Part shown: in pieces, positions 11,386 through 60,424 of the stretch
How positions within the stretch are numbered: the first letter of the stretch is position 1
Layout: every line of letters starts with the position of its first letter
Assembly: GCA_014904985.1 (NCBI GenBank)
Contig: MU128939.1
Coordinates: 24,913 to 88,912 of the forward strand
Length of the DNA stretch: 64,000 nucleotides
Source: Hydnum rufescens UP504
Taxonomy: Eukaryota > Basidiomycota > Agaricomycetes > Cantharellales > Hydnaceae
Direction of reading: 5' to 3'
The notes under the pieces: model-generated
Database searches by the model: none
What the model saw: only the letters and a program-made list of their open reading frames with translations
Told to the model about the DNA's origin: nothing
Made by a program: the position numbers and the translations under genes

Positions 11386-11880
11386 TTTTGGATATTAATG
11401 ATGAAACACCTTGCACTGCAGGCCGCGAAGAAGAAAGGTGGCAGATTTTGGCAATGGTGGGATGGGGATTAATAGTTTCACTTGATTATCTTGGTTTTAT
11501 ATACAAGTTTAGCTTCATACAAGTGAGGCACCACAGTGGTATAAACCTCCTGAAAAAAATTCAGGAAAATATATTTCGAAGGTGCCTTTTCATAGTTCGT
11601 CGGGTCCGTGATGTGTGGGGGGTTCAGTTCACAAGTCCCTGTGACCTGTGACCGACCCTATGGTCAGTACAGTATGTGCACATAATCTGGGTATTAATTT
11701 GGAAGATTGCAGAACAATGCTAACAACCAAAACTAGCTACGAGAATATCTAAAAAAGAAGGTTCTATGCATTCTCAAGGCGAGCTCAGAACGGCAAACCA
11801 ATTTCTGTGGGTGCAGCAATCTGGCATCGCGGAAGCAAATCGACCAACTTCAAGTCTCCTCAACCATCTCAACTTATGCA

Positions 11881-12783
11881 ATGGCTACTAACCCTGCCAG
11901 TTCCGGGGGGAGTAGCTTCGCTTCCTCAAGCTCACTAGCAATGTCTGCAATGGCTGCCACCCCTGCTGTTTCGAGTGGGGGGGGTAGTCTTGCTTCATCA
12001 ATTTCAAACCCAATTTGCGAGTTGAAACCTGGCTCTGTCACAAATGGAGAGGGTGCACTCACTTCCTCAAGCTCACAGATCGATGATTTGGACTCTAGCC
12101 CCGCTGTCTACAGATTTCTACTATGCGACCATGTCGAAGTGAGTCTGCAACACAACGGCTCATACATTCTCTGTCATTGCATCAGCTCTGGGCGTACCAT
12201 CCTTCCATTCCTCAAAGCGATCTGCCGCGGTAAAAGATCATGGCAGGTCTGCCATACCGGCATCCGTATCGCCCAGCGAATCGCTGCTATGATGGGATGC
12301 GCAGTTCTTCCCCATCTGCGAAACCTCGTCGAGGTGATCGCACATGACATGTCCTTACGAAGCTATGATGGACCTGGCCATGCGATGGACCACCGTTTGC
12401 ACGTTCTCTGCATTCACTCTGAGGATTCCATCCTTCTGTTCGACAAAGCGGTCTGTCGCAGCAAGAAATCATGGCAGGCCCGCCATACCGGCATCCGTAT
12501 CGCCCAGCGAATCGCCACTATGATGGGATGCGCAGTTCTCCCTCATCTGCGAAACCTCATCGAGGCGATCGCACATGACGTGTCCTTACGAAGCTATGAT
12601 GGACCTGGCCATGCGATGGACCACCGTTCGCACATTCTCTGCATTCACTCTGAGGATTCCATCCTTCTGTTCGTCAAAGTGGTCTGTCGCAGCAAGAAAT
12701 CATGGCAGGCCCGCCATACCGGCATCCGTATCACCCAGCGAATCGCCGCCATGATGGGATGCACAGTTCTCCCTCATCTGTGA
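11881..12783 (+). CDS. Chimeric open frame: family N-terminus fused to tandem repeats
   Basis: A 300-codon frame starts with ATG. Residues ~1-78 are Ser/Ala/Gly-rich (two [14 protein letters not shown] units) and match the N-terminus of the gene family at 2,957-3,322. From about residue 80 it reads through two full 77-residue units and part of a third (units rich in Cys, His, Arg, with [17 protein letters not shown] and LPHLRNL) of the 231-bp tandem array. The 231-bp period is a multiple of three, which is why the frame stays open. It ends at a TGA inside the array, while later units continue in shifted frames. I see no domain I can name. It may be a fortuitous fusion of a gene 5' end with a satellite. 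Confidence 0.35.
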
Positions 12784-13492
12784 AATCTCGTTGAGGTGAT
12801 CACACATGACATGTGCTTACGGGGCTGCAATGGGCCTGGCCATGCGATGGACCACCGCTCGCGCATTCTCTGTCACTGCATCAGCTCTGGAGATTCCATC
12901 CTTCTGTTTGTCAAAGCAGTCTGCTGCAGCAAAAAATCATGGCAGGTCCGCCATACCAGCATCTGTATCGTCCAGCAAATCACCATCATGATGGGATGCA
13001 CAGCTCTCCCTCATCTGCGAAATCTCGTCGAGGCGATCGCACATACATGTGCTTATGGGGCTGCAATGGGTCTGGCCATGCGATGGACCACCGCTCGCGC
13101 ATTCTCTGTCACTGCATCAGCTCTGGGGATTCCATCCTTCTGTTTGTCAAAGCGGTCTGCCGCAGCAAAAAATCATGGCATGCCATACCGGCATCCATAT
13201 CATCCAGCGATTCACCACCATGATGGGATGGGCAGTTCTCCCTCATCTGCGAAACCTCGTCGAGGTGATCGCACATGACATGTCCTTACGGGACTGCAAT
13301 GGGCCTGGCCATGCGATGGACCACCGCTTGCACGTTCTCTGTCACTGTATTAGCTCTGGGGATTCCATCCTTCTGTTCGTCAAAGCGGTCTGCCACAGCA
13401 AAAAATCATGGCATGCCATACCGGCATCCGTATCGTCCAGCGATTCGTCACCACGATGGGATGCACAGTTCTCCCTCATCTATAACTTATTG
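12100..13492 (+). repeat. 231-bp tandem repeat, six units
   Basis: A motif AACCTCGTCGAGG (with small variants) recurs at 12,321, 12,552, 12,783, 13,020 and 13,252, giving spacings of 231, 231, 237 and 232 bp. Each unit also carries CATGCGATGGACCACCG and CATGATGGGATGC. Units are well preserved, with a few indels in the later ones. The array stops near 13,492. Confidence 0.9.
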
Positions 13493-13918
13493 AAGGCTTA
13501 CACTATGTCTTACTACCTTGGTGGAGGCCATGCTATAACTAAGTCCTTTGCTCAAGCTTAGGGGGAAATATTGTAATTGATACTACAAATGGACGGTCAA
13601 AATTAAGTACAGGTTATATATAAAATTGGGAGTGGTTGGTCACCGGCGTGACGTGCGGACATTGCCGAAACTTACTGTTCTTTTTTTGTTCAACGCTTAA
13701 CCGTGCTTCCACTTCTTGTAGGATCCAGGCACGAGCATACACTCCATGCTGACATCCACAAAGCCCTCAAGAAGCTCGCTTCTGGTGACTGGGCGTCCCG
13801 AGCTTGAGCTCCGTGGCGTCTTTCCCAGGTCGTCAAAACTCGTTCGAGATTTAGCCCATCACTGTGGGACGTTTAGTGTGAGCTTGAGCTCCACACTAAC
13901 CTCTCTAGTGCTTCAAAA

Positions 13919-14333
13919 ATGCCTGCCAAGCGAAAAGCACCCCTCAACGAAACATCGCAGGCTTATTTCTACCTCCACAGAATTCCTAACCTCAGTGATA
14001 CCGAAGCTGAGGACTTAGATTATCTGTGGGGCAATGCCACCGCTTCCAAAGATGACGTCGAACAGCTCCTTGTCAATGGTATTGGGAAGCTTCTCATTTG
14101 GTGCAACATCATTGGTTTTCCAGTCAGGTACATCTTTTGAACCCCATTTAAGGATTCTTTTAGCCTCGTGCTTCAGATTAGCGGGGACCCAACAACAGTT
14201 GCGAGGATTGAGAGGGAATTGGTGGGAGATCATGAAGACTGGGACAAAAAGGGTGTGTGCACGACTCTATTGTGTATGAAGTACAAGTATGAATCAGAGT
14301 TGGAGGCTGCTGGTACACCTTGGTCAGTCATCT
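13919..14333 (+). pseudogene. Hypothetical gene truncated by element E1
   Basis: A frame starts at ATG 13,919 (MPAKRKAPLNETSQAY) and is acidic and Asp/Glu-rich (TEAEDLDYLWGNATASKDD). It probably continues through a ~54-nt intron at about 14,124-14,177 (CCA|GTCAGG to CTTCAG|ATT) into ISGDPTTVARIERELVGDH, then KYKYESELEAAGTPW. A competing donor (AG|GTACAT) would break the frame, so the intron is provisional. The last codons and stop lie in the start of E1 (TTGGTCAGTC), so the natural 3' end is missing. I do not recognise the protein. Conserved codon-like structure suggests it was a real single-copy gene before insertion. Confidence 0.4.
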
Positions 14334-14560
14334 AAGCCTACCTAGTTAGGTACCACTTCCGGGCAGATAATGCTACCTAAGTAGGTCCCATCACTATTTC
14401 GGCCGAAATGGCCATTTTATGATTTGCACTTCAATCAACCTTCTGGCCAGAATTGGCCGAAATGGCCGAAAATTGGCCGAAACTGGGACTTAGAGAGTCT
14501 CAGACTTACAGTGGGCCATATGGGCTTATCGGGGATAACATGTACCATTTATAATTATTT
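14318..14560. repeat. E1 left (L-type) terminus
   Basis: It begins with CACCTTGGTCAG, then an imperfect palindrome around the paired TTAGGTACC and TACCTAAGTAGG, then several GGCCGAAATGGCC-like units, then CTTATCGGGGATAACATG and an ATTT-rich tract. The same series opens E2 at 32,208 and is present inverted at 42,300-42,394. Confidence 0.8.
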
Positions 14561-14654
14561 ATTTATTTATTATCACCCTATTATACATATACTGCCCCAG
14601 GAGGGCAGTCTCATGTTATTCTTGTTTATTTATTTATTCAAAAATTCAATTTAA

Positions 14655-14956
14655 AAAACATACCACACCTGGCCTAGTGGGTGTGGTACCATCCGTGGAT
14701 CTCAAAAAAAAAGAAGAAAGTACTTAGTAGCACCACACCCGACCTAGCGGCTGTGTGGTGCCATCTATATAAATCAAAAACAAGTACTTAGTAGCACCAC
14801 ACACCCGCTAGGCGGGTGTGTGGTACCATCTGTAGAAATCAAAAAAAAAGGACTTAGGACCACACCCGCGATAGCGGGTGTGGTGCCGTCCATAGAGATC
14901 AAAAAAAAAAGTACTTAGTAGCACCACACACCCGCCCTAGCGGGTGTGTGGTGCCT
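14655..14956. repeat. Tandem A-hairpin array, five units (~65 bp)
   Basis: Five successive inverted repeats of the ACCACACCCGC / GCGGGTGTGGT type occur at about 14,661-14,687, 14,731-14,761, 14,794-14,823, 14,858-14,884 and 14,925-14,956. They are separated by AAATCAAAAA and GTACTTAGTAG spacers and lack introns and B hairpins, unlike the modules further in. Confidence 0.85.
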
Positions 14957-16968
14957 TCCGTCGCTTCATCGGGTTCGGCCGGTTTTCAAAGGGGGGGGGA
15001 TGTCGCGGGCGGTATCTGTTACATGATAACCTAGAATAAATAAGAGATATGTTAGCTCTGAACCAAAAGTAGCGCAGAAAGAGCTGCTCCTGCTGCTCTT
15101 TCTACGCCACCTGGTAAACGGAAACAAAAAAAAACAGACCTTCTGTACCACACACCCCCGCTGAGGGGGGTGTGTGGTACCGGGCATTGCTGCCTTGGGG
15201 GCTCGGACGGGGGTTCGCCCGGCTCATTGGTGGCCATTTGGGGGGCGGGGCTTGGCGGTTCACCGTTGTGCGTCGTTTGGACAGGTTGCGGCTGCCTGTT
15301 GGGGTGTCGTTGTTTCGGGAGCTTCGGATTCGATCCTAGAATGATAGCGTACATTAGTAAAAAAAAATCGCAGTGACGCAAAAGGAGCAGCTTGCGCTGC
15401 TCCTTTTACGTCACCGTTCGTGTAGAAAATTTAAAAAATACCTATGGTACCACACACCCGCTTTGGCGGGTGTGTGGTACTCGTTTTGGCCCGGTCGCGT
15501 ACCTCCCACCGTCGGTTTTTCGTACAGGGCTCAGGCGGGTTGGGGGGTTTTCGGGCATGTACTCGTTCAGGGGGAGCGAGATCTAGAATAAAACAATTTA
15601 GATTAGTTAAAGTTAAAAGTGACGCAAAAAGAGCAGCGACAGCTGCTCTTTTTTGCGTCGCTATATCTACGGGGAACGGGACTCACTTTAGATGACCACA
15701 CACCCGCCGCAGCGGGTGTGTGGTCTGGCCCGGTTTCACTCCTTGGTTCGCTGGTCGGGTGCGGTGTTGTGTCGTGGTTACCGTTCGCGGGTCTTGATTA
15801 GGAGGTTGGTGGGGGTCCCGGGTTCAGATGAAAACCTAGAACCTAGGATAATAAATAAATAACATGTTAGTAAAAAGGAAAAAAAGAAAAAGCCACGCCA
15901 AAGGAGCAGCGTATGCTGCTCCTTTGGCGCAATCATATTTATGCGTAGGGATTACTTACCTTAAAATTACCACGCGGTGTGTGGTTCGTCGGGTTCCGTG
16001 CTCTTGCGCCGGGCCTTCTCATTCGCGGTTTTGTTTGGTGGGTCGTCGTTGGCGGTTTTCGTTCGGCACTCGTTGTTTTGGCGGGTGGCGTTGTTGGTTT
16101 TCGTTTCGCGGGGCGTTGTCATTTCCACGGGGGGTTCCTTTCGCGGGTCTTCATTTTGCTGGTTGTGGCAAGGCGATAACTTGGAATAATAAATAATATG
16201 TTAGTAAAAAAATTAATTAATACCAGCGTAAAAAGAGCAGCATCTGCTGCTCTTTTTACGCCGTTGTGGGTACACGAGGTCACTTACCTTGTATAGAACC
16301 ACACACCCGCCGTAGCGGATGTGTGGTTCATGCGGGTTCCGTTCGGCGCGTCGTCGTCGTGGGTTTCGGCGGGTTATCGTTTCGGGGGGGGGGCGGTTTC
16401 GTTTTACGGGTCTTCATTTATAGCAATAGCCTAGAATAATAGATGTATTAGTTAGAAAATCAAAACCGGCGCAAAAAGAGCAGCATTCGCTGCTCTTTTT
16501 GCGCCGTTGGGGGTGTACAGCCTTACTTACCATATAGAGCCACACACCCGCTGCAGCGGGTGTGTGGCTCGCATGGCCACTCGGTCAGCGCGTCCCCCAT
16601 CTCTCGCGTTCCCGTCGTATTGTATTGTCGTTTGGCGTGGTTCATTTGGCGTGGTGTCGTTGGGCGTGGTTTCGTTTGGCGCATTTTCAGTTCTCGTGTT
16701 GCCATTTGGGCCTCGTCGTTTCGTGGGGTGTCGTTTAGTGCCTGGGACCAGGCTATGACCTAGAATAATATATAATATAACTACGTCAGTAAAGAAATGG
16801 AAAGCAGCGCAAAAAGAGCAGCGTTCGCTGCTCTTTTCGCGCCGTTGTATCTACTAGCATTAAAAAAACTCACCTTTTGACCACACACCCGCAACGGGGG
16901 GGTGTGTGGTCGTCGCTTGCCTTTCCAGGCGACTCCCTGTTCAGTCTGTCAGTATGCGGTTGACGCAA
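14957..16968 (-). repeat. E1 left arm: seven hairpin-intron modules
   Basis: Read on minus, putative introns lie at 16,760-16,873, 16,431-16,530, 16,180-16,287, 15,843-15,959, 15,583-15,686, 15,336-15,441 and 15,031-15,139 (100-117 nt). Donors are GTGAGT, GTAAGT, GTAAGT, GTAAGT, GTGAGT, GTATTT and GTCTGT; acceptors are CTAG except CAAG in the third; branch-like TTAGTAA (ACTAA on minus) sits ~20-40 nt from the acceptor. Each intron holds one B hairpin, and each exon ends with an A hairpin 5-15 nt before the donor. A hairpins are near 16,880, 16,540, 16,297, 15,970 (shortened), 15,693, 15,449 and 15,149. Exons do not join into one continuous frame. Confidence 0.75.
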
Positions 16969-17055
16969 CTCAACGCCGGCAATTGCCGGAACCCAAAAGC
17001 GCCCAAGTGCTGTCGCTACAAGCACAATACATAGCAATAGCAAGTATATAGGCAT
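16870..17055 (-). CDS. Signal-peptide-like first-exon frame (left arm)
   Basis: A minus-strand ATG at 17,055 inside the palindrome opens MPIYLLLLCIVLVATALG, a convincing hydrophobic leader, followed by a short tail that runs through the first A hairpin (HTPPRCGCVV) to the first donor. If translated, it would be a secreted or membrane peptide split by introns. Against this, the mirror frame in the right arm has a TAG where this arm has a TGG codon, and E2 uses a different frame over the homologous bases. I therefore regard coding as unproven. Confidence 0.25.
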   Translation of the reverse strand: MPIYLLLLCIVLVATALGRFWVPAIAGVELRQPHTDRLNRESPGKASDDHTPPRCGCVVKR

Positions 17056-17305
17056 ATAATAAATTAATATTTAGTAAATATTTGCCCAATAAGACGACAA
17101 AGAGAGCGATAGTAAGTTAGAGCTCAATAAGGCACGATATGCCTTATTGAGCTCTAACTTACTATCGCTCTCTTTGTCGTCTTATTGGGCAAATATTTAC
17201 TAAATATTAATTTATTATATGCCTATATACTTGCTATTGCTATGTATTGTGCTTGTAGCGACAGCACTTGGGCGCTTTTAGGTTCCGGCAATTGCCGGCG
17301 TTGAG
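16969..17305. repeat. E1 central near-perfect palindrome (337 bp)
   Basis: The two halves are inverted copies about a centre at 17,137 with a ~5-nt spacer (CGATA); the only arm difference noticed is one base (TGG versus TAG codon at 17,279-17,281). Each half contains AT-rich, TATA-like sequence (ATTATATGCCTATATA) ahead of an outward ATG (17,055 on minus; 17,219 on plus). A divergent promoter is a reasonable inference. Near identity of the arms suggests recent formation or gene conversion. Confidence 0.9.
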
Positions 17306-17510
17306 TTTGCTCCTCTCTTCACATCTCCGCGACCATAACAGGCAACGGCCTGGAAAGGCAAGCAACCGACCACACACCCGCCGCTGCGGGTGTGTGGTCA
17401 CAAGGTGAGTTTTTTTTATTGGTAGACACAACGGCGCAAAAAGAGCAGCGAAAGCTGCTCTTTTTGCGCTGCTTTGAATTTTTATACTAACACATCTTCT
17501 ATTATTCTAG

Positions 17511-17793
17511 ATTGAAGCCTGGTCCAAGGCACGACGACAACCCGCGAAACGACGAGGGCCCAACCGGCAAGAGCCCAAACGGCAACGCGTCAAACGAGGA
17601 CGCGCCAAACGACAACGCGCCAAACGGCAACGCGCCAAACGGCAACGCGCCAAACGACAACGCGCCAAACGGCAACACGCCAAAAGGCAATGCGCCGAAC
17701 GGCAACACGCCAAACGAGGACGCGACCACACCACACCAAATGAGGGCCGCAGGAACCACACACCCGCCACGGCGGGTGTGTGGTACAGTATAA
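17511..17793 (+). CDS. Asn/Pro-rich exon frame
   Basis: The second exon of the right arm is open from its acceptor to a TAA that ends 1 nt before the next donor. It encodes repeated N-A-P-N-G/D units and closes with TTHPPRRVCG over the A hairpin. Similar exon frames with THPxxRVCG endings and a TAA just before the donor occur in E2 at 41,568-41,726 and 41,828-41,974. Because the stop ends each exon, this is either a family of single-exon peptides or a by-product of the repeated DNA. No conserved domain is seen. Confidence 0.25.
17570..17730. repeat. 15-bp tandem repeat in E1 exon
   Basis: Imperfect copies of CAACGCGCCAAACGG repeat about ten times. A degenerate counterpart is seen in the left arm at 16,620-16,690 and in E2 at 35,260-35,520, so a tandem tract at this exon position is an old feature of the family. 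Confidence 0.75.
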
Positions 17794-18775
17794 GGTGAGT
17801 CCCCCCCCCCTAGTGGATACCCCCGCGCAAGAAGAGCAGCGAAAGCTGCTCTTTTTGCGCGGTCTTTGACTTTTAACTAACATATAACATTATATTGTAG
17901 GTCCTCCCTTCCCACGCGAACGAATGCGGACGCGAAAACCCCAGCAACCCCGCCTGTCGACACCCGAACGATGGGGGGATCCGTGCAAACCGCCCTACAA
18001 ACGAGCCGGAGTACACGGCCCCAGTACCCCGCACCCGCCGCAGCGGGTGCGAGGTACTACAAGGTTTTTTTTGTTTTTTTGTTTTATTTTTCATTCTTGT
18101 GGCGCAAAAAGAGCAGCGTGAGCTGCTCTTTTTGCGCTGCATTGATGTCTAACTAACTTAGTATTGATTTCTTTAGATCCTGGACCAGAACCCGAGCCCA
18201 GCCCATCACGAATCCGTTAACAACACGCCGCGAACGAAAACCGCGAACAACCCCACGAACGGAGCCGTCAACGACGCCCCCTCGAGGGACCACCTAAATG
18301 GAGCCCAGGCCCCCAACAGGGGTGGATGAGCCACACACCCGCTGCGGCGGGTGTGTGGCTATATAAGGTATATTGTTTTTAATAGCTACAACTGCGCAAG
18401 AAGAGCAGCAGGCGCTGCTCTTCTTGCGTGAGTTTTGATTTTTAATTAACATATTTACTATTCTACATCAAGATGTCCCACCCCAACGCGCGAAGATACG
18501 CAGCCACGAGCCCAAACCCGCGGATGCCAGGACCCCAACGAAACCCCGCGCCCGATTACGCGCGAACACGAACAAACGAAGGACAACGAACGAAAACCCG
18601 AGGGAGTGCCCAAATGGAACCGACCCCGACCGGGGCATATGAACCCCACCCGCTGCGGCGGGTGTGGTGGGTATATGCAGGTGCGTGACCGGCAGGAACC
18701 ATGCCCCCCCTGTGGTGGCAGACCCCGGGGGGGGGGATAATATGTATATAGCATAATATGTATATAATTATAGTA

Positions 18776-18812
18776 GTAATAATAATAATAATGATAATAA
18801 TAATAATAAATA
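18776..18812. repeat. TAA microsatellite near E1 right end
   Basis: A run of AATAAT-type trinucleotides follows the last A hairpin. The left arm has an ATTT-rich tract at the equivalent place. Confidence 0.8.
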
Positions 18813-18839
18813 AATATATAATCTAGCACAGCCATGGAT

Positions 18840-19072
18840 TGGCTGAAATGAATCGGAATGACTGTATTTTGGCCGTATTTCGGCCATACTGTCTGGGGAC
18901 CTATTAGGTACCATTTTCTGCCCCGAAAATGGTACCTAATTAGGTCCCCAATTTAACTGACCAGCCTGGTATTTTGGCCGTATTTCGGCCATACTGTCTG
19001 GGGACCTATTAGGTACCATTTTCTGCCCGAAAATGGTACCTAATTAGGTCCCCAATTTAACTGACCAGCCTG
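18840..19072. repeat. E1 right (R-type) terminus, tandemly duplicated
   Basis: Two ~112-bp copies (about 18,847-18,960 and 18,961-19,072) each contain GGCCGTATTTCGGCC, the palindrome pair GGACCTATTAGGTACC / GGTACCTAATTAGGTCC, and end in CTGACCAGCCTG. They differ by a single C in TCTGCCCC. Related in inverted form to the L-type terminus, and to the fragment at 33,729-33,880. Confidence 0.85.
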
Positions 19073-19748
19073 CCGCTATATATCATTCTTCTCATCGCTA
19101 ATCCCTTACTATTTTCATCTAATCATCACCATTGTGTATAGTTTATTTGTAGACAATGTATACACTGTATAGTAAATATTGATATTCGGCTAACTCCGCA
19201 ATGTCACCGACTCCAATCAACACTACTACCATTCAGTCACCAGTACCTGTGTGGTGAAGTATAGCACTGCAACGCTGTTGTAGTGTTTATTTCCCAGCAC
19301 CTCAAAGCTTCCAGTTGGGAGAATCACTGTTCCCAGCACTTTGCCGCCTAGCTGTCCGGTTAAACAAAACACTGTCATGCTGCGATATTGTTTGTTTTCT
19401 GGCACTCTCAAGCTTTCCCTTCGGTTTTCATTGGTTGGGTGGATCACTACGACTTGTCTGTAGTGCCTGCTTGCCAATTCTTCCAAAATCCTCTCGCGCC
19501 ACATTTCTGGTGGAGTTGTGTGCTGTCGCATTGTGACAGTGCCATTTCCCAGTACGCTCAAAGCCTCGCTCTTTGTTCTCTGGGTTAAGCAATGTGTTGT
19601 CATTACTTGACATTTGTTGTTTTCCCGCCATCAAGTTGTCGTTCTCGAGGTCGTTTTAGATTCCTAAAGGGTGAGTGCGTAAAGTACATTGTCTTCTTAT
19701 TTCGTTCTAAACTTCTCATAACTAATTTGTGTCTAGCTTCTTTCTAGA
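19073..19748. other. Stretch between E1 and KDZ gene
   Basis: No recognisable coding region. It would include the 5' flank of the KDZ gene. Repeated TTCCCAGCAC/TTCCCAGTACGCTC-like phrases occur at 19,290-19,560 but do not form a clean array. Confidence 0.4.
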
Positions 19749-22700
19749 ATGATCAGCAATGCTATGAGAAATGCCAGGAAAAGAAGTGCACACAGGCCTG
19801 GCTCCTCAAATGGGGCTTCTGCGGTCGGTCAGGTACGGGTTCGGAACGCCATGTCTGCCACCGATACAGGTCGGCTGCACACATCCCCAGTGGGCACTCA
19901 ACGGTACTCGATCTCCCTCTTTCCCAGATCTCCTTGACTCTCAGAGTCCTGTGCATCAGATTTCGTTACTTCGAGTACCTGGATGTTCAATACAACTCAA
20001 CGGATGTCTTAATTTCGTCGAACATCCAAGTCATTGATGACCAACATTCACGACACGCTCGTCGGAGGCACGTGCAGGCACACCGCTGGAGTACAAGTGT
20101 ATTGCCCGCTCTTATTCGACCATACATGAGATTCCAAAGAGAACGCTCCGGTGCTCACCAAGCTGAAGAGCAAAGTTGGTTCGTCTGCAAGTGTGGCAGC
20201 CAACACCACTCACTTGAGGTGGTCTGTGTGCATATGGAATGTGTTGAGGACATTACGCTGGACATTTGCAAATGCAGACCTGCCCCAGTTCAACTTGTGC
20301 AACGTGGTTTTTTCCCATGTTCTCCGGTTCATCCTACCCTAGCAGTCAGCCTCGATATGCTAGAATTCGTTGCGAGCTCTTCCTCCACATTGCACCCAAT
20401 GAAAGAGGTTGGGCTGCAACGCTAGTCAAGTACCTGAAGGCCCATGGATACTACTTCATGACTGCTGATTTGTTTCACCATTCGCTTTGCCAATGCACAC
20501 TTGCTCATTACCAGCAGCTTGTGAGACTCGTCAATGCAGAGGTTGAAAAATTGGTGGATCGTTCGCGAGCCCATAGTGGTGAAGATTGTGTGGCACCCCA
20601 GTTGGACAGAGACTACCCCAGTCAATGGGCGAGAGTATTCAAATGCGCAGAACACTGCAACCTTCCTGAGCGATCACAACATTCCTAGTACCTATCTGCA
20701 GACATGGTGTCCCTTATGTTTTGGTAGTAATAGCTCAGAGAATGGGGATTTGAAGGTTGATGCCATTGTGTGCCTTGATGCAAACTTCCAATTGAAATGT
20801 CAGCAAGACTTGGACTGACATGCTGGTCATCAGGGCGAGACTGGGACCCAGGATCCCTTTGTTGTGTCACCAAGAACAATTGAGCTATCTGTGGAGAGAT
20901 TTGGAACTGTGGGAGGCCAAAATCCTTGACCTTCGACCCAAGAAGTCCTCAGCCTGAGCTGGGCAGAAGCAAAAAGCCAACAAGACCATGGAAAGTGAGG
21001 TCGCATGCTGTAGAGGATGAAGACAAGGTGGAGGACAATCTTAAAATGCCAAATTCAACATATAGTGCATGTGGTGAGTCCTTTATTGCTGTGGATGGAG
21101 ACCGTGTCAAGGCTTTGACTCAATATTTCAGTGATACTGGTGTTCTTGCCATGCTCTGCTGCCATGATATTCCCCTAGTTATTGCTAGCATGTGGACTGC
21201 CTGGTGAAAAACAGTTCTACACATGCACTCTTCTTGATTTCCTTTTCAAGCATTTGCCTCATTGCTGGAGAATTGGTGTTTTGTATGATATTGGCTGCCA
21301 AATGGACCAGTCATTGAAGAAATGGAATTTCATGCCTGACTGGTCTCCACATCTCGAGTGGGGCATCTCAATTTTCCATGCTTATGGCCACCAGTGGATG
21401 TGCCAACTCTGGTACCATCCAAGAAAGAGCACAATTTGGGGCCTCTCAGATGGAGAAGGGTGTGAACAGTTTTGGAGTGGACTCCGCTGACTTATTCCAT
21501 GCCTTAGGGTAACAGGCTATCATCGACATGCCTTTTCATTCTCAATCTACAAGTGGAATGCATTGATGAAGAGAAGTGGGGGGACTTTGGAAAATGGCTG
21601 CAGGTCTGTGTTGATTGAGCTCAATCTCAGTTGGATGAGGCTAAAGAGAAGCTTGCCAAAAGTACATTTTCAATTGAGTACCTCCTCCACCAATTCAAAG
21701 AGCAATGTGCATATCATAGTAAACCTATCATCTGGCAGTCAAAAACCCAAGGGGCTCATGCAATAGAGCACATCCTGTCCTTGCAGTTGACATTAGAGGC
21801 ACAACAAGAGAACTTACAGGAACTGATTAGTGAAGGCAATGATGTGATCCCTGAAGACTCTGCTGGTGAAGCCATACTTGTTGAGTGGCAGGAAAGAGTT
21901 CATTCAACCAAGCTGGCTATTAGTCGACTTCAGTCCAATATCAAGAAAAGGACAGAAGGGCTGAAATTAGGGGATTGGGTGGTGGCATGGAAGCTAGAGC
22001 AACTGAAGAAGGATAGATGGATCACAATGCAACTTAATCTTCACATTCTTCATGAGCAGCTTGTGCAGAAGTTATGTGTCCACAAATTCAAACTTGCAAC
22101 ACTGGATCATGCCCATTCTACATGGATATTGGACCAGAAGACAAAGGTGCATGTTGAGAAGGTGGTACACCATCACTCACCCAGGATTGATGCAATGATG
22201 AAAAAATACAATGTGAAGATAAAGGAGATGGCAGAATATCATCAGACATCAAGGACAATATCAAAAAGTGCATATATTCCTCCCTTGCTTTTAAAGGAGG
22301 GTTTGTACAAGATGGATGTGGATCAGGATATATGGGAGGATGCATGGGCTGATGTTGGAGACTTTCCTGATGGTGTTCTTCCTCAGTGGTTGGTGGATGC
22401 TTCAGTCAAAAAGGGTATTTTCATGGCACAAGAAGTGGTTAATTGTGAGCAAGAGTTGGAGAGGTGCAAGGTGGAGAGCAGTAACCTTTGAACATGGTTC
22501 TACATGGAATATTGGGCAGTCAAGAGACTAGTCAAAGAAGTGGATGATGAAGTATCATTCTTTGCACTTCACCAACTCCATCAATTGTATGAGTGGCTAG
22601 AACTCTGGAGGGTGAACATGATCCATGTTCCTACTCTGTCTACTGCCCCAAGCTGGGATGAGTTTCTTCCCCCTCTGACACTGGAACATCATGCATCATG

Positions 22701-22851
22701 CATACAAGTCCATGTGCCTAATGTAGATGGTGATGATGATGATGCCATATCTTCAGATGATGATCAAGATGGAGAAGTAGAGGAAGATATAGAGACTGAG
22801 GATCTTGGCTTTATCACATTAATAGACAATGTAATAGGAGACTTTCAGTAA
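19749..22851 (+). pseudogene. KDZ (Kyakuja-Dileera-Zisupton) transposase with CxC1 cluster
   Basis: A CxC1-type cysteine cluster lies at 20,173-20,350 (WFVCKCGS...ICKCRPAPVQLVQRGFFPC), followed by TLAVSLDMLEFV. After a frame change near 20,350 comes the usual APNERGWAATL segment. The transposase core spans ~21,080-21,560: VDGDRVKALTQYFSDTG, GEKQFYTCTLLDFLFKHLP, YDIGCQ, SIFHAYGHQWMCQLWYHPRK and GLSDGEGCEQFWSGLR. A long helical, Lys/Glu-rich C-terminal region follows (21,631-22,491), then an acidic tail (22,504-22,851). KDZ transposases move DNA by cut-and-paste and are abundant in basidiomycetes. Stops and frame changes (for example TGA after FWSGLR at 21,488) show this copy is dead. The 5' end is uncertain. 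Confidence 0.85.
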
Positions 22852-23529
22852 TACTATAGTCTTAACCCATATTTGGTTGATGGACTGAGATTTTGCACAA
22901 GTCCCAATAAATGAGGCACTTGACAATGATTGACATCAAAAGATTGTCAAATTGTAGTTTCCCATTGTCAAGATTCAGTTTTTTGATCATCACTTGACAT
23001 CAACCATGATTTCAGCCATTTAGGCATACCTAAGTCACCAACATGTCCCTCCTTTTAAGGCCCCTCTATATGGCTGACCAGGCTGCCTACTCAACTTCAA
23101 GCCATACTGCAAGCCACACCTTGGGCTGTGGTTTTCTGTTGCCCCTCTCCCTCCCAAATTCAGAGTCTCATCATTTTTTCAAGGCTTTTTCACACACCCT
23201 TGACACCTGTTACAACTTTGAGCTACACAGCAAACCATGCCTCAGTCTCCCTACATTGTTGTCACCTCTCAAAGTTCAGAGTTTTGTCAGTTTCTTGAAG
23301 TGTTTTGAGCAGCCTCATACACCTAACTGAATTTCAAGCTGCACACCAAGCTACACCAGGAGCCATTGCTTTCTGTTGGCTGGAGTTCTCAGCTACTCTT
23401 CAATTCTTGATTTCATTGGTTTTAGATTCTCCTAACTATCATCCTATTGTAAGTTTTGCATATTTCTGTCTATTGCAGTGTTTGAAGAGTTAACTACCCA
23501 ATATATGTAGTCCCTTATCACAATTCAAC
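22852..23529. other. KDZ 3' flank and intergenic stretch
   Basis: No gene is supported. TTGACA- and TTGTCA-containing phrases recur at 22,920-23,010. The sequence GGCTGACCAGGCTGCC near 23,072 resembles the end motif of E1/E2. Confidence 0.35.
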
Positions 23530-26517
23530 ATGGTCTCCACTCATCACACTGAAAAATCATTGCACCCACCTTCATTGCACCTGCCTTCATCATGCCCACC
23601 TTCATCATGCCCACCTTCATCATGCCCACCTTCATCATGCCCACCTTCATCATGCCCACCTTCATCATGCCCACCTTCATCATGCCCACCTTCATCATGC
23701 CCACCTTCATCATGCCCACCTTCATCATGCCCACCTTCATCATGCCCACCTTCATCATGCCCACCTTCATCATGCCCACCTTCATCATGCCCACCTTCAT
23801 CATGCCCACCTTCATCATGCCCACCTTCATCATGCCCACCTTCATCATGCCCACCTTCATCATGCCCACCTTCATCATGCCCACCTTCATCATGCCCACC
23901 TTCATCATGCCCACCTTCATCATGCCCACCTTCATCATGCCTGCCTTCATCTTGTTGGTTCCATATTCCAGAGGTTGTAATTAGCAAGACTCATGCTTTC
24001 ATATCAGATCCCTCCAACTTGGCAAGCCAATCCCACCCCAGTGCCTCATCCTCTCCCTCCAGACACAAATCCAGTACTAAAAAAGCCAAGAGTGCTCCCA
24101 GATCAAAGAAAGCAGCTCCAAGAGCAGCCACCTTGTCTAAGGGCACAAAATTGACCCCCAAATCTGTGCTCCAAGAAAGGCAATTGTTGAAAATGCCATC
24201 TATTGTCTCTGGAGCTGTGGGGATGGTCATCAAACCTCCATCTGTTGAGCTTCCAGCTCCATCTCCTAGCCCATTTTCTCCACCTCTCCCCCTCCCAACA
24301 TCATTGACCATTGAGAATAAGATTTCTGCTTCCACACCCACTCAATCTTCCAAACACCAACTGCTCAACACACCCCCATCAGTTTTGAAATCATCATTGG
24401 TCTCATCCTCATCAAAGAGGACTTGAATGAAAAATTTGGAGGCTGTGTCATTGCATGATCAGCTGATCAATGAGGATGATTCATCTGAGGCAGAGGAAGA
24501 TGATGTCTTTCAGATTTCAGCTCAGGCTGATGATGACTGGGTGGATGTGATACAGGGATCTGATAGAGAGGATACCAATGATGACATTGGAGTATTGTCC
24601 CCAAAGCACTCCAAGGTGTTGGTGCCCAGTGATTCTGTTGATAAGGATCAATCTGGGCTGGGAGGGACAAAATTGCTTGCAAGAGGTCCAGGAGGACAAG
24701 GGGGTTGATTTTCAGAAGCACAATTGCAGGAAGTGGAAAAACATGCTGCAGTGTTCAAGGCTGTGATTACTGGTCTGGCTCAGTCTTGGAGCTGCTATCT
24801 TTTCACACTGTACAGAATTGCTGGAGTTGCTGGGACACTCACCAAGAGGAGAGGGCCAAATGCATGGAATTCATTCCAGCACCAGCAAAAGCTTGCCAAG
24901 AGGAACCCTTCTGGTTTAGGTGAGATAATCTATTTAACTCTTAGGCACTTAATTGTCTGATGACTGGGCTTGAGTAGGAAAGGGAGGCAGGATTGTCACC
25001 AAATTTTAAAGCCAGCATATGAGGAACTCCAAAAGGAATGTGGCAGCCCCAGCCCTGCAGGTTGGCATGATCATTGTGAGACCCTTGTCAAGGATCTACA
25101 AATGGAAAAAGCTTCAATGACCACCACTATTGTGATGACTGGAGGAGATGTTGCTTGGAAGATGGCCCAATCAAAGGCAAATCTTGATTCAGAGGTAATG
25201 TGTCGATCCCATGACCTGCCTTAGTTACACTTGCCTGATTGCTTTGTTGTACTCAGGGAAAGATGCTCTGTCCAATTGGAGTCCATCTTTTGTACATGAT
25301 GGTGTCCGACCTTGCCTTGTCAATGGCAGCCCATAGCCAGAACTTGATCAACTTCAACAGTGAGGAACTTTGTGAGTGGGTCAAACATGAATGGACATCA
25401 ACAAATGTGCCCAAAATGAAGAGGCCACTTGCTTCACTTTACATGCATGTTCTCCAGACAAAAGGGATGGGTGAGGACCTCACTAATTTCCAAAAAGATC
25501 AAGATGAAGCAACTCATGCGAAAGAGACAAAGGATCAATATACATTGTGGAGGGCTGTCTCTACCAGTCTGCTGAAGATGCTTGGTGAGCATATATATTT
25601 GAGTCATTGGGGTATGCTGTTAATTACTCTTGGATCCCTCTTAGGATCACTTCAGTTGAACTACAAGAGCATGCCATGGTCTTCAATTCTGCAAAAGATG
25701 GTGGCAGGGAGAGTATGTTGCATCTGTTGGCCTGGGGTTGATGGTATGCCTCTACTTGGCATGTTCTCTGCCGATGATCTCAAGACACATCACTGGTGAT
25801 TGGTTTATGATGCAATCTGGTCTACAGATCCACTGAAAAAGCTCTGTTTTGAGAGAATTGGCAACTTAGGTATGGATGTCTGGGATCTCACTAGATTTGA
25901 TTACTGAACATGCTTTTTCATAGACTTGGGTGACAATGACATCTTGGTTACAGGTGTAGACAATGGGCCACTGCTAACTGTGCAACAAGCCCAAGATCTC
26001 CAAGTGGGGAAAAGAGAAGGGCAGTGGATAAAGATGATGATTTGGACCAGGCATTGGGATTGCCAGCAGCAGTGATCAAGAAAAAAGCAAGAATTATCCT
26101 GCCTTCTGGTGGTGGGCTAAAGACTGGAAGGGAGAAAGGCAAAGGCAGAGCTCCACCAAAGTTGATGCCATATATTGATGATGACAATGATGTTGACATC
26201 AAGGATTCTGTGCTTATGAATCCTGTTGGTGATTTGGGTGTGGCAAGCTCATCTTTACTGACCATGCCACCCAATGTGGCATTATTCCCTGGGGCACCCC
26301 CATTGTCTGGCCATGTTGGTCCATCCACCTCTGATTGTTCAACTCCAGCCCCCTGGTACCATCAATGCCTGAAAATACCTCTGGCTCCAGTTTGTTTTTT
26401 GAATGGGACCATGATATTTCAATCCAAAATTTGGCTTGGCAACTGATGCAGCCCTCAACTTTACCTTGGGATGATACAAATTTCAGTTTACTTGTTCCCA
26501 AAGATAATTGTTCCTGA
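23530..26517 (+). CDS. Hypothetical multi-intron gene with Cys-Pro-Pro-Ser-Ser repeats
   Basis: The frame opens at ATG 23,530, passes through about 24 PPSSC units, then a Ser/Pro/Lys-rich stretch ([20 protein letters not shown]) to a single TGA at 24,424. The following ATG at 24,427 continues an acidic region ([18 protein letters not shown]). Three good introns follow: 24,920-24,977, 25,195-25,256 and 25,585-25,644 (58-62 nt, GT...AG). They join segments containing [30 protein letters not shown] and [21 protein letters not shown] Lys/Asp-rich C-terminus is at 26,024-26,446. Retained introns and open exons suggest a gene that was recently functional. I do not recognise a domain. Its place between KDZ and DUF6589 remnants makes it a possible transposon accessory gene, by inference. 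Confidence 0.45.
23590..23948 (+). repeat. 15-bp minisatellite (~24 units), coding PPSSC
   Basis: CCACCTTCATCATGC is repeated head to tail about 24 times, nearly without change; only edge units vary (CTGCC, CTTGT). The 15-bp period preserves frame and gives Pro-Pro-Ser-Ser-Cys. All six frames are open through it, so the repeat alone does not prove coding. Confidence 0.95.
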
Positions 26518-27719: not shown

Positions 27720-29024
27720 CATTGGAATTTTCTATTATCCAAAAAGACCTTCATTTTCCTGGACCTGAATATTCGAATTGTCCCTGTGGCTCCCTTCATT
27801 TGTCCTCTCCTCAATGATGTGGACAGTAGTTGGATTGGTGCATAACCAGCCTGCTTACAACAGCAGTGCTGGGACTGTTCCATGTTAACATGAACTGGCT
27901 GCTTATGATGCTGAACATCTATCAAGGCTCAAGCATTGATAATGGTTCACTCAATGATTACATTACCCTTCTCAGTCTCAAATGACTTCATAATGAGAAA
28001 CCAGACCACCATCTCCTCCAGCATCTCATCCTCCATGTGTATGAAGGGCAGATCCTGGCTTGCTGGCTCCAGGTCTCAGGTTTCAGCATGTTTGAAGATT
28101 TTGCAGCAACATCCCCTATGAATGCCCAAATCTTGAAGCTTGCATGCTCTATTCACAACCAGTTTGTGGGCACTGCATCTGCCAATCAGTTTTGCACCAA
28201 TCATGAAGACTTCACTACTCAGGATGATGTCCTTTGTAATGCTGCACTGTTTAATCATGATGCCTCAATTTACCTAGAAATGAAGGAGGCTGGAAGTGTT
28301 GGCAATTGGGGACAAATCAAAATGATACTTCCTAACATTATCTGCATCTTTCAAGGCAGTGGAAGTACTAATTATGCTGTCGAGCTCCTCCATCTTCTTC
28401 AAAATCTGAAATATTCTTGGACTCCTGTGTATGCCAACATGATTCAAAGCAATATCTTAATCAATCTAGCAGGCCATTTGAATTCATACATGCCTGTTGA
28501 TCTCAACCAGGAGCACCACATCAGAGAACTTAAAGCAATCCCTCTTGCTCTCATGAGTGCTCTTTATTCTTATGGTATTCTCATAGTTTTATTATGTGAC
28601 TCATGGCCTCCATGCTGAACCTGAGTTCCTGTATATGATAGGCCCCATTGTCCCACAGCTATGCTCTTTGAATCATGCTTTCAGAGAGGGGCTTAGAGCT
28701 CCTTATCTTGGAACAAGTCACACTACTCCAGACATAACTCTTGATACTCAACAGATAGCTGCTAAGTGTGAAGAGAGGGGCATTTTTGTTCTATGAGGTG
28801 GACATAAAACACAAAATACTGTTCACAACTCTCATTTGAAGGGATTCATTGCATTGTCAACAGGAAGGACCCTCAATGTATTCAAGGACAGATCTAACCA
28901 TGAAGAAGAGGAGGATGAGATATTTATGCATGAAAAGAATAGAGAACAGGATGAAGATAATCAATCAGAGGTAGACAAACTCATTGATGAGATCAAGGCC
29001 CTCAAAAATGAGGTGTCATTTTGA
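27720..29024 (+). pseudogene. DUF6589-type protein relic
   Basis: The best-preserved part, 28,037-28,618, reads MYEGQILACWLQVSG, then NHDASIYLEMKEAGSVGNW, then FQGSGSTNYAVELLHLLQNL, then LAGHLNSYMPVDLNQEHHIR. The Gly-Ser-Gly-x-x-Asn-Tyr-Ala...Glu-Leu-Leu motif and the later Met-Pro-Val-Asp-Leu...Gln-Glu-His are typical of the DUF6589 family, which is found in many copies in basidiomycetes and is probably transposon-borne. Upstream segments (27,720-28,036) are interrupted by stops. Downstream pieces at 28,596-28,796 and 28,836-29,024 (acidic, coiled-coil-like) follow in other frames. Confidence 0.6.
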
Positions 29025-32207: not shown

Positions 32208-32410
32208 CACCTTGGTCAGTCATCTAAGCCTACCTAGTTAGGTACCACTTCCGGGGCAGATAATGGTACCTAAGTAGGTCCCATCACTATTTTGGCCAAA
32301 ATGGCCAAAAACTGGCCAAAAATTGGCCAAAACTGGGACTTAAAGAATCTCAGACTTGCAGCAGGCCATACAGGCTTATCGGGGATAACATGTTCCATTT
32401 AGATTTATTT
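32208..32410. repeat. E2 left L-type terminus
   Basis: CACCTTGGTCAGTCATCTAA opens a segment nearly identical to 14,316-14,545, including TTAGGTACC / GGTACCTAAGTAGG palindrome arms. GGCCGAAA units of E1 appear as GGCCAAAA, the expected CpG decay. Confidence 0.85.
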
Positions 32411-32520
32411 ATTTATTTATTTATTATCACTGCTACCCCCAGTCAGTGGGGGTTAATTCAGCAGTTCTGTTTTATTCGTACTGAGTTGTTTATTTTTTAT
32501 TTATTTATTTATTTAAAAGT

Positions 32521-32752
32521 CACCACACCACACCCACTGGGGTGTGGTACCATCTGTACAAATCCAAGAAAAAAACTATTTACACACCTGCTTAGGCGGG
32601 TGGGTGGTACCATCATAGAAATTTAAAATAAAATTAAAAAAAAAACTATCTAGTGGCACCACACCCACTTAGGTGGGTGTGGTACTGTCCATAGAAACTT
32701 AAAAAAAAAAAAACTGGGTAGTAGCACCACACCGCTTGGGCAGGTGTGGTCA
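32521..32752. repeat. E2 tandem A-hairpin array, four units
   Basis: Imperfect inverted repeats at about 32,521-32,550, 32,581-32,611, 32,657-32,684 and 32,726-32,752 correspond to the A-only array of E1. In the third unit both arms have changed (CCCAC with GTGGG), so pairing is kept. Confidence 0.75.
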
Positions 32753-33728
32753 GGGGTGTGGCTTGGCACTTCACCATTGGGTGCAGGTTGCCATTGGGGT
32801 GGGTCATCATTTTGGGGGCTTTAATTTGGATCCTAGAATCATACTGTATGTTAGTAAAAAAAATTGAAGTGATGCAAAAGGAGCAGCTTGTGCTGCCCCT
32901 TTTGCATCATTGCACGTATAGAAATTTGAAAAAAAAACCCTTGTAGTACCACACACCCACTGAAGTGGGTATGTGGTACTGTTTTGTACCAGCTGGGCGT
33001 CATTTTGGGGGTTCGCGGGCTTCCGTTCTCACAGCTGTCTTTGGCGGGGTCACAGGTCTTTGATTTGGGGGTTAGTGCGGGTCTTAGGCTCAGGTGAAAA
33101 TCTAGGAATAAATAACATGTTAGTAAAGAAAAATAAAAAAAGAAAGCCACACAAAAGGAGCAGCATATGCTGCTCCTCTTGTGCGATCCTACTTATCTTG
33201 AAATTACCACACACCCACCAAAGCAGGTGTGTGGTTCATCTGGGGTCCCTGGGCCTTGCATCGTGTGTCCCCATTTCTGGGTTTTGTTTGGCAGGTCGCA
33301 TTTGCAACTCTCCATTGGCAGGTGCATTGTCATTTCCAAAGGGGGGGGAGGTTTGTTTGGCAGTGGTTCAGGTGAGAACCTAGAACCTAGAATAATGAAT
33401 TTGTTAGTTCAAAATTAAAATGGATGCAAAAAGAGCAGCAAGGCTGCTCTTTTTGTGCCCTTGGGGGTGCATTACTTACCTTGTATAGAACCACACACCC
33501 ACCATCGCGGGTGTGTGGTTCATACTGGTTTTGACATTGTCCTATGTCTTCATTTGGCACATTGTCATTCACGGGCGTGTTATCGTTTGGAGGGGGAGGG
33601 GGGGTCGCACCATGGGTCTTCATTTGTATCTGTGGTGATACCTAGAGTAAAGATTTATTAGTTAAAAAATTAAAAGCGACACAAAAGAGCAGCTTTCACT
33701 GCTCTTTTTGCGTCATTGGGGGTACATA

Positions 33729-33880
33729 CCAGGCTGGTCAGTCACATGGGGGACCTAATTTAGGTACCACTTTCGGGGCAGAAAATGGTACCTAATAGGT
33801 CCCTCAGACCTTATGGCCAAAATCAGGCTATTCCAATTCAGTTTTTGGGCCATCTATCAGCCAATCCATGGCTGTGCCAG
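33729..33880. repeat. Nested R-type terminus fragment inside E2
   Basis: It begins CCAGGCTGGTCAG and matches, inverted, the right end of E1 including the paired TAGGTACC arms and ATCCATGGCTGTGCC (inverse of GGCACAGCCATGGAT-like sequence at 18,828). It interrupts an intron of the left arm, so a second element of the family once inserted or recombined here. Confidence 0.75.
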
Positions 33881-34390
33881 GTCTTCATTTGTGGGGGTTC
33901 ATTCATAGTTATCGTTCGCCATGTCTCATTTGGCTGGTTCTGCTTGGGGGCTCGTGGGGATTCTGGTTCAGGATCTAGAGAAATAAATAATAAAATATTA
34001 GTGCAACAGTAATGCAGCACAAAAAGAGCAGCTTATGCTGCTCTTTTTGCACCACAAGAATAAGAAATAAAAATAAAAATAAAACATACCTGGTAGTACC
34101 CACACCCACTGCAGGGGTGTGGGGTACTGGGGCCATGGACTCCAGGTCGTCCGTATGACTGTTTGTACAGGTCTTCTCTGTGCCCTATCATTTGGGCATC
34201 GATAAGTGGGGTGGTGGGGGGTTTTGCATCAGTATTCTTTTGCAAAGGACTCGAGACCTAGATGATACAATTGTTAAATTAGTTAAAAATTAAACAACAT
34301 GCAAAAGAGCAGCTTTCGCTGCTCTTTTTGCGTGGCTGTAGGTAGTGGGGGGAGAAACTCACCTGATATGGAACCACACACCTGCTGTAG

Positions 34391-35218
34391 AAGATGCTTT
34401 ATCGCTCTGCAGAAATTACTAACACCACCAGATGTTGGTTAAGGTTATAGGGATTGGGAATGAAAAGGTATGGGAGGGGCTCAGGTTAGTCTCAATGGGT
34501 TGATTGGCTTACTAGGTATGGAAATGATATGGATGACTCTGATATGACGTAATGTTTCTGACTCTAGCTGGACTACTTGTATCACGATTGTCGAATTGAA
34601 ACTTAGAAGCTATTTCTGATTTTGAACTTTTATGGGCTTGAACCTATTATCGTATGATTCAGGGCTTAGACGTCTAGCACACCTACACTGAGGGTCCTAC
34701 AACTATCTACAACTTCTTGTTGTTGCTCTGAGTATGCCTTTCAGTTACTTGGCCACTTGAATTTCTCGTCTGTAACTACTTTATTTTGAGGGGAGTCTTA
34801 TTTAAAAGCTACCTAAAACTACAAAATTCGATTCCTTATATGTATTTTTGGATGTCTGTGTACTTTTCTGCACCAAAGTCTGTGTGATGTTTGGAATGGC
34901 GCAGTTGTGGGACGTTTGGATGACTAAATCAGGCTGAGTCATATCTTTTGCTTAGTCATACAAATAGCTTTGTCATACTTTTGAGTCCAGGTTTTTGATT
35001 ACAAATCTTGGTTACATAAGCATATTTTTTTTGACATGTAGAAAACCTTTTATTTTGTTTGTTGAATGGAGTCATTTCAACTGAGTTTCCTTGATATCTT
35101 TGGGCAGTAGCAAGATAAGGTTGTCCTAAACACTCCAACAGATCATTGATTGAGGTCTAAGGTCAGAGCACATCCAAACTCGCGTTTTCAAATACTAGCC
35201 AGTTATTCCTCCCACACC
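34391..35218. mobile_element. 828-bp insertion in an A hairpin, ~7-bp target duplication
   Basis: The A hairpin begins GGAACCACACACCTGCTGTAG and resumes at GCTGTGGCAGGTGTGTG. GCTGTAG (34,384-34,390) and GCTGTGG (35,219-35,225) look like a 7-bp target duplication with one change. The insert carries no recognisable gene; near 34,900 it has CAGTTGTGGGACGTTTG, also found in the foldback at 40,430. No terminal inverted repeat was found. Confidence 0.5.
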
Positions 35219-35259
35219 GCTGTGGCAGGTGTGTGATTCCTGGCATGTCATTTGATGTG

Positions 35260-35525
35260 GTCGCATCCTCATTTGGTGTGGTGCCATATATCGCATCATT
35301 GGCGCATTGCTGTGTCACCTTTCCATGCGTTGTGCTGCCATGTCACATTGCCTACATTGTGGTGCCATGTCACATCCCCATGCATTGCAGTGCCATGTCG
35401 CATCCCCGTGTGTTGTGGTGCCATGTCATGTTGCCATATGTTGCACTGCTGTGCTTACATTGCAGTGCTGTGTCACGTTCCTGTGCATTGTGCTGCCATG
35501 TCATGTTCCCAGGCATCATGTTCCC
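35260..35525. repeat. Degenerate tandem tract in E2 first-module exon
   Basis: Phrases such as GTGCCATGTCACAT recur every ~15-30 bp. This occupies the exon position where E1 has its 15-bp repeat, and looks like a CpG-decayed version of it. Confidence 0.6.
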
Positions 35526-35663
35526 GTTTGGGCTCTCATCATGCATTGGGTGAGGCCTCAATCTAAAATAAATAAAGGTGCATTAGTAAAAAATTCCAAA
35601 GCAGCGCAAAAAGAGCAGCGTTTGCTGCTCTTTTTGCACTGTGGTATCTACTAGACAAAACAC

Positions 35664-36401: not shown

Positions 36402-36455
36402 TTCGCAACTACACAGCCACACCCAGCAACAGAAATGTGACCACATGACCATGAC

Positions 36456-36537
<82 letters not shown>

Positions 36538-52631: not shown

Positions 52632-52639
52632 GTGAGTTG

Positions 52640-60422: not shown

Positions 60423-60424
60423 CT

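What the first reader, a model, noticed from the sequence alone, without database searches (positions are those of the whole stretch)
14318..19072. A palindromic element built from repeated 'hairpin + intron' modules
E1 has two divergent arms leaving a 337-bp palindrome. Each arm is a chain of modules with fixed order: A hairpin, GTAAGT-like donor, B hairpin, ACTAAC-like branch site, TAG acceptor. Eleven modules occur here. Foldback elements have modular inverted arms, but I know of none whose modules are intron-like and carry two dedicated hairpins. It could be a new class of mobile element or a structured, spliced RNA system carried by one.
Basis: partly seen in the sequence, partly recalled or inferred. 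Interest (0 to 1): 0.92.

Follow-up and report, generated by a model that had tools for sequence, protein, structure and literature searches.

The report
Fungal transposon built from intron-hairpin modules
A hedgehog mushroom genome carries hundreds of copies of a mobile DNA element with an end shared with a known fungal transposon class, but filled with chains of non-coding intron-like units, each with two hairpins, running outward from a central palindrome; it looks like a transposon that makes spliced, structured RNA, although no RNA data were available to prove it.

Summary
E1 (window 14316-18969, plus a ~105-bp end duplication to 19072) has a 341-bp palindrome and eleven outward-facing modules: A hairpin, donor, B hairpin, branch site, acceptor. 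It is a high-copy family, apparently in Hydnum rufescens UP504: 345 left-end motifs, 321 right-end motifs, 3766 exact B-hairpin cores. It is a TIR transposon with 7-8 bp target duplications: 10 of 15 sampled end pairs plus 3 of 3 long loci, against 2 of 210 mismatched pairings. Its right terminus is that of KDZ (Kyakuja-Dileera-Zisupton) transposons: 10 of 10 KDZ copies examined carry the motif, inward, 1.5-2.3 kb past the transposase domain, 4 with E1's subterminal hairpin. E1 is best read as a non-autonomous KDZ element. Its interior looks non-coding but keeps splice-site conservation, covarying stems and sense-strand tetraloops (GNRA 38 against 3, UNCG 25 against 4). GTAAGT lies upstream of B 1156 times, downstream twice. 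Divergent transcription and splicing are inferred, not observed. Class known; interior not found described.

The parts
14316..14430 (+). Left terminus: CACCTTGGTCAGTCA plus subterminal hairpin ACCTAGTTAGGTACCA..TACCTAAGTAGGTCCC
   Evidence: Shared border of copies; 345 genomic places of TTGGTCAGTCATCTAAGCC with <=1 mismatch, 0 in control
14662..14952 (-). Five A hairpins without B hairpins, spaced 63-70 bp, far end of the left arm (strand inferred from the arm)
   Evidence: Direct repeat family D3
15004..16949 (-). Left arm: seven modules, B hairpins starting near 15079, 15383, 15629, 15902, 16233, 16476, 16814
16967..17307 (.). Central palindrome, arms 99% complementary; several relatives have a longer one; candidate divergent promoter (inferred)
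   Evidence: longer versions in L010, L011, L012, L014, L017
17331..18511 (+). Right arm: four modules, B hairpins starting near 17441, 17832, 18109, 18401
17405..17510 (+). Best intron-like unit of the right arm: GTGAGT .. B hairpin .. ACTAAC .. TAG
18644..18686 (+). Last A hairpin plus donor-like GGTGCGT without a following B hairpin
18864..18968 (+). Right terminus: hairpin GGGGACCTATTAGGTACCA..TGGTACCTAATTAGGTCCCC, then AACTGACCAGCCTG
   Evidence: Shared border of copies; GACTGACCAGCCTG at 321 places, control 1; KDZ copies carry this end
18969..19072 (+). Tandem duplicate of the right terminus
   Evidence: Families D10, D11

Best explanation
E1 is one copy of a high-copy non-autonomous KDZ-type TIR transposon of (by inference) Hydnum rufescens. 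Shown here: its right end is shared with KDZ transposase-bearing copies, the family makes 7-8 bp target duplications, and the interior is an apparently non-coding array of modules, each with U2-type donor, branch site and acceptor, one hairpin (A) just before the donor and one (B) between donor and branch. Inferred: KDZ transposase moves it in trans; the central palindrome acts as a divergent promoter giving two outward, multiply spliced, structured non-coding RNAs; B shortens a ~108-nt intron to an effective ~70 nt and A keeps the donor region ordered, so the transcripts splice efficiently. The most likely benefit (inference) is to the element: abundant splicing would make its transcripts look host-like, or keep its chromatin open for transposition.
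For: Copy number. TSDs: 10 of 15 sampled end pairs and 3 of 3 long loci, against 2 of 210 mismatched pairings. KDZ ends: 10 of 10 KDZ copies examined (my choice from the listing) carry CAG[GC]CTGGTCA.. pointing inward, 1.5-2.3 kb past the domain on its 3' side; the same 15-mer with <=2 mismatches occurs twice in 1.10 Mb of 139 viral and prokaryotic control loci; 4 of 10 have E1's subterminal hairpin (R end against L072 84.5%, E 2e-15). Published KDZ elements make 8-bp (4-8 bp) TSDs: Zisupton (PMC12730594, passages); KDZ1-3 of Cryptococcus (PMC12810828, passages). Splice signals: AG|GTRAGT, ACTRAC and YTAG are among the conservation peaks. Orientation: 1156 against 2. Composition: exon flanks A+C 66%, intron parts T 47%. 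Stems: two-sided changes 120 against 38.7 shuffled for B (114 distinct rows), 62 against 35.2 for A (101 rows). Tetraloops: GNRA in B 38 sense, 3 antisense; UNCG in A 25 and 4, of 176; weighted by 58 clusters, 11.0 against 0.5 and 8.7 against 1.3. Non-coding: internal exon lengths mod 0/1/2 are 49/47/51 in 40 chains, mean longest ORF 130 aa against 117 shuffled; no protein scored E <= 0.001 against one spliced translation.
Against: No RNA data, so transcription and splicing are inferred. The 5' end of a KDZ element was not found in the two extended loci, so only the right end is matched to KDZ. The two extended KDZ loci have no modules. E1 has no TSD, 5 of 15 sampled pairs have none, and 0 of 5 left-left or right-right pairs do. 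Wobble pairs favour the sense strand for B (GU 188, AC 69) but not for A (70, 99). In the first 100 donor-anchored B hairpins genome-wide GNRA is 8 against 0, all one loop (GAAA), and AGNN loops are commoner (24 against 9). By my reading, 7 of 40 spliced chains have a sense ORF at least 2 s.d. above their shuffles, and exon lengths mod 0/1/2 were 26/31/16. Other conserved columns besides splice sites exist. Modules are related, so counts are not independent; hairpins without a 4-nt-loop register were dropped from the stem counts.
Confidence: 0.72

Rival explanations
1. Passive cargo: a non-autonomous KDZ element that once captured a spliced transcription unit; the modules multiplied by tandem duplication and the hairpins stay perfect through template-switch correction of quasi-palindromes, without any RNA function now.
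For: Modules are repeated units; E1's palindrome arms are 99% complementary; some pairs decay symmetrically, GU about equal to AC, in both stems (B pairs 14-15, A pairs 2-3); several modules have degenerate sites.
Against: Strand-specific tetraloops and conservation at splice sites are not expected from correction of palindromes alone.
Confidence: 0.25
2. Decayed protein-coding gene array: exons of a repetitive protein with introns.
For: Some exons hold open 5-aa repeats (GNAPN-like), and by my reading 7 of 40 spliced chains have a sense ORF at least 2 s.d. above shuffles.
Against: Exon lengths mod 0/1/2 are 49/47/51, mean ORF 130 aa against 117 shuffled, antisense ORF longer than sense in 33 of 40 chains (counted from its output); no protein hit for one spliced translation.
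Confidence: 0.05
3. DNA-level structure: hairpins and palindrome act as cruciforms or protein sites for transposition or chromatin, and splice signals are incidental.
For: Terminal and central palindromes; many modules repeat every 250-300 bp.
Against: Donor orientation 1156 to 2 relative to B, branch and acceptor conservation, sense-biased tetraloops.
Confidence: 0.08

Closest known systems
KDZ (Kyakuja-Dileera-Zisupton) DNA transposons of fungi
   Same: Right terminus motif in 10 of 10 copies examined and, in 4 of 10, the subterminal hairpin; 7-8 bp TSDs against 8 bp (4-8 bp) published
   Different: No transposase found; interior is an intron-hairpin array; left terminus not yet matched to a KDZ copy
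Foldback (FB) elements
   Same: Inverted arms made of repeated units; palindromic
   Different: Arms diverge from an internal palindrome, the termini are distinct short inverted repeats, units carry intron signals (FB features recalled, not from a call)
Introners / introner-like elements
   Same: Mobile DNA with splice signals; many introner families have TIRs or TSDs (PMC9860276, passages)
   Different: Here many introns per element in tandem, in a non-coding interior; splice sites are not at the element ends; the one apparently isolated B site checked was again an array

Membership tests
KDZ transposon (non-autonomous member) | Terminal sequence shared with transposase-bearing KDZ copies of the same genome | tested here: met
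   Right end only: 10 of 10 KDZ copies examined, 4 with the same subterminal hairpin. Left end not matched
KDZ transposon (non-autonomous member) | 8-bp (4-8 bp) target site duplication | tested here: met
   7-8 bp at 10 of 15 sampled pairs and 3 of 3 long loci; 2 of 210 mismatched pairings; none at E1 itself
KDZ transposon (autonomous) | Encodes a KDZ transposase | tested here: not met
   No KDZ match listed inside E1; no convincing coding signal in the arms
KDZ transposon (non-autonomous member) | Mobilised in trans by KDZ transposase | not testable with these tools
   Needs a transposition assay
Foldback element | Long inverted repeats reaching the element ends (recalled definition) | tested here: not met
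   Termini are distinct short inverted repeats with a left and a right type; modules lie inside
Introner | Single copy inserts into a gene and is spliced out as one intron | tested here: inconclusive
   Introns lie in tandem inside the element; only one lone-looking B site inspected, it was an array
MITE | Short (under about 800 bp, recalled) non-coding TIR element | tested here: not met
   Element about 4.7 kb

The most novel reading that the evidence does not exclude
A DNA transposon family that carries its own spliced, structured non-coding RNA system: two divergent transcripts from one palindromic promoter, each a chain of standardised intron modules with a hairpin in the intron (often GNRA- or AGNN-capped) and a hairpin at the exon end (often UNCG-capped), kept by selection because splicing or the hairpins help the element persist (for example by passing as a host intron-bearing gene to escape silencing).
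Probability: 0.42. Interest if true: 0.87.

Novelty: new variant of a known kind. Interest (0 to 1): 0.66.

Why it matters
If the modules are spliced, this genome holds thousands of similar introns, with built-in replicates of donor, branch and hairpin variants, on a non-coding mobile element. That would make two questions testable: whether introns protect transposons from RNA-based silencing, and how hairpins next to splice sites tune splicing. It would also show a non-autonomous DNA transposon that keeps RNA-level features, not only its ends.

Tried and rejected
Protein coding: thought unlikely; 7 of 40 chains with long sense ORFs are the evidence against that view, and on recounting them I raised this rival from 0.03 to 0.05. 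Known RNA family: none at gathering score in the window. hAT origin: 90 Dimer_Tnp_hAT matches were listed, but their ends were not examined, so hAT is set aside on the KDZ evidence and not excluded. KDZ gene inside the element: by eye, no listed KDZ match lay between the ends of the roughly 34 left-right pairs I picked from the truncated listings. Two-left-ended or two-right-ended variants: five candidates, none with a TSD. Copies elsewhere: the B core was found as one site per stretch in 20 viral stretches and as one or two sites per stretch in the 80 listed of 119 prokaryote stretches (scan stopped at its limit); no other fungal genomes were reachable. Concerted evolution of the whole palindrome: arms 83-99% identical in 15 palindromes against a between-copy median of 83%, so this is not shown. 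Isolated intron in a host gene: the single site tried (C2:7609) was an array. Literature: no description found in searches (open-licence papers only); listings read for all, passages for PMC12730594, PMC9860276 and PMC12810828 only.
Full report
What is there. E1 occupies window 14316-18969; its last ~105 bp are duplicated in tandem to 19072. In the middle lies a palindrome (16967-17307, arms 99% complementary). Seven modules run leftward on the minus strand and four rightward on the plus strand. Read in sense, each has a CACACCCGC..GCGGGTGTG-like hairpin (A), a donor (10-14 nt after the A core where GTRAGT is found), a GAGCAGC..GCTGCTC hairpin (B), a branch-site motif and an acceptor. Some sites are degenerate; they are listed in the observation check.

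Where it is. The window is C31:24913-88912 of a 63.2-Mb genome. A protein search with the neighbouring KDZ reading frame returned 17 proteins; those with an organism name are all Hydnum rufescens UP504, and one lies on a contig of 177,994 bases, the exact length of our contig C133. I know the lengths of only part of the contigs, so this is one exact match, not a full check. I take the source to be H. rufescens UP504.

A multicopy family. The E1 query gave 516 matches in the genome, the best near-full-length relative at 90% identity on C7. The left-end motif (<=1 mismatch) occurs 345 times (0 in the reversed control), the right-end motif 321 times (control 1), the exact B core at 3766 sites (control 0). 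Annotated relatives keep the same plan: left end, zone with A hairpins, minus-strand modules, centre, plus-strand modules, right end (L049, L051 clearly, L050 with a long run of N). Several relatives have a longer central palindrome; E1 lacks about 280 bp that they have there.

It transposes as a TIR element. I sampled 15 left-right pairs from the listings; 10 have 7-8 bp target duplications with at most one mismatch, and so do 3 of 3 long loci (L049-L051). Pairing flanks of different copies gives 2 of 210. Five left-left or right-right pairs gave none, and E1 itself has none.

Which transposon. The genome has 154 scored KDZ transposase matches, a lower bound. I looked at the 3' side of ten KDZ genes of my choice from that listing: two 9.9-kb loci first, then eight 1.2-kb stretches at the distance the first two suggested. 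All ten have CAG[GC]CTGGTCA pointing inward, 1.53-2.32 kb past the domain. Four of them (L072, L073, L213, L216) have E1's subterminal hairpin as well. The 15-mer with up to 2 mismatches occurs twice in 1.10 Mb of 139 viral and prokaryotic control loci; in the window it occurs four times, at E1's two right ends, at the second element and at the end of the KDZ remnant. E1's right end matches L072 at 84.5% over about 70 bp, E 2e-15. Published KDZ elements make 8-bp duplications, with 4-8 bp in two families (PMC12730594 and PMC12810828, passages). The 5' end of a KDZ copy was not found in 14.9 kb around one gene or 9.9 kb around another, so the left end is unmatched. Within that limit, E1 is best filed as a non-autonomous KDZ element.

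The interior looks non-coding. In 40 spliced arm chains, internal exon lengths modulo 0/1/2 are 49/47/51 and the longest sense ORFs average 130 aa against 117 in shuffles; counted from the output, the antisense ORF is longer in 33 of 40, but 7 of 40 sense ORFs lie at least 2 s.d. above their shuffles, some of them through short tandem repeats. An earlier, cruder count of 73 exons gave 26/31/16. A 242-residue spliced translation found no protein at E <= 0.001 among 697 candidates.

The intron signals are maintained. In 176 oriented modules, weighted column conservation has peaks at AG|GTRAGT, ACTRAC and YTAG; the other high columns are hairpin arms and their flanks and some T-rich positions, and most columns beyond the acceptor are below 0.7 bits. 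GTRAGT is between A and B in 107 of 176 (shuffled 4.5, reverse complement 0); YTAAC..YAG follows B in 115 (24.9; 4). Introns recognised by motif have a median of 108 nt (145 introns). The 100 nt before A are A+C-rich (66%), the 60 nt after B T-rich (47%). Genome-wide the donor GTAAGT is 5' of B 1156 times and 3' twice.

The hairpins look like RNA hairpins of the sense strand. B loops are GNRA 38 times in sense and 3 in antisense; A loops are UNCG 25 and 4 times, of 176. With 58 sequence clusters weighted equally the figures are 11.0 against 0.5 and 8.7 against 1.3. In the first 100 donor-anchored B hairpins genome-wide, GNRA is 8 against 0, all GAAA, but AGNN loops are commoner (24 against 9), so GNRA is one preference among others. 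Stems change on both sides more often than in shuffles (B 120 against 38.7, 114 distinct rows; A 62 against 35.2, 101 rows; none of 300 shuffles reaches either) and far exceed slid registers in percentage paired; hairpins without a 4-nt-loop register were left out. Sense-strand GU exceeds AC for B (188, 69) but not for A (70, 99), and some pairs decay symmetrically. These counts come from related sequences and are not independent events.

How it most likely works. Shown: right terminus, duplications, copy number, module grammar, splice-site conservation, no convincing coding signal. Inferred: KDZ transposase acts in trans; the palindrome is a divergent promoter; both arms are transcribed outward and spliced many times; B loops out about 36-40 nt so that a 108-nt intron behaves like one of about 70 nt. 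Why a transposon should benefit is open. A plausible reason is to resemble intron-bearing host genes: human HUSH silencing recognises long transcripts without introns (abstract of PMC7618375 in the listing). No such system is shown in this fungus.

Against this. Without RNA evidence the arrays could be passive cargo kept tidy by palindrome-correcting mutation. Strand-specific loops and conserved splice sites argue against that, but do not settle it.

Novelty. The mobile class is known; the interior is not described in the papers I could search, which hold only open-licence articles. I rate it a new variant of a known kind, with a more novel reading (a transposon-borne spliced RNA system) at 0.42.

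Noticed in passing
window 32208-42100: A second, disrupted element of the same family: left end at 32208, B hairpins from 32879 to 36646, a palindrome at 40357-40538, plus-strand modules to 42049, and a right end of another copy on the minus strand at 33730.
   Followed up: partly
window 19748-23085: Remnant of a KDZ transposon (CxC1/CxC2 domains at 19748-20425) just downstream of E1, with a KDZ-type end at 23071-23085 whose terminal 15 bases equal those of L217, L218 and L220.
   Followed up: partly
window 27986-28618: Reading frame with DUF6589 (E 4e-48).
   Followed up: no
window 23486-23980: Minisatellite-like tandem repeat open in several frames.
   Followed up: no
window 11737-13561: Repeated protein-like unit in overlapping frames.
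   Followed up: no
window 51777-61165: Retrotransposon-like reading frames on both strands (gag/Ty3 capsid at 54108-55277, Tf2-1-like SH3 at 58325-59101).
   Followed up: no
window 14662-14952: Five A hairpins followed (in minus-strand sense) by T tracts, without B hairpins; could mark a transcript end (inference).
   Followed up: no
C26:372810/377345, C56:63660/67261, C27:53265/54273, C5:231319/236209, C34:354081/357594: Facing pairs of two left or two right ends 1-5 kb apart; none has a target duplication.
   Followed up: yes
L050, about 1.1-7.0 kb: Long run of N between the two ends of a paired element: an assembly gap or a withheld stretch.
   Followed up: no
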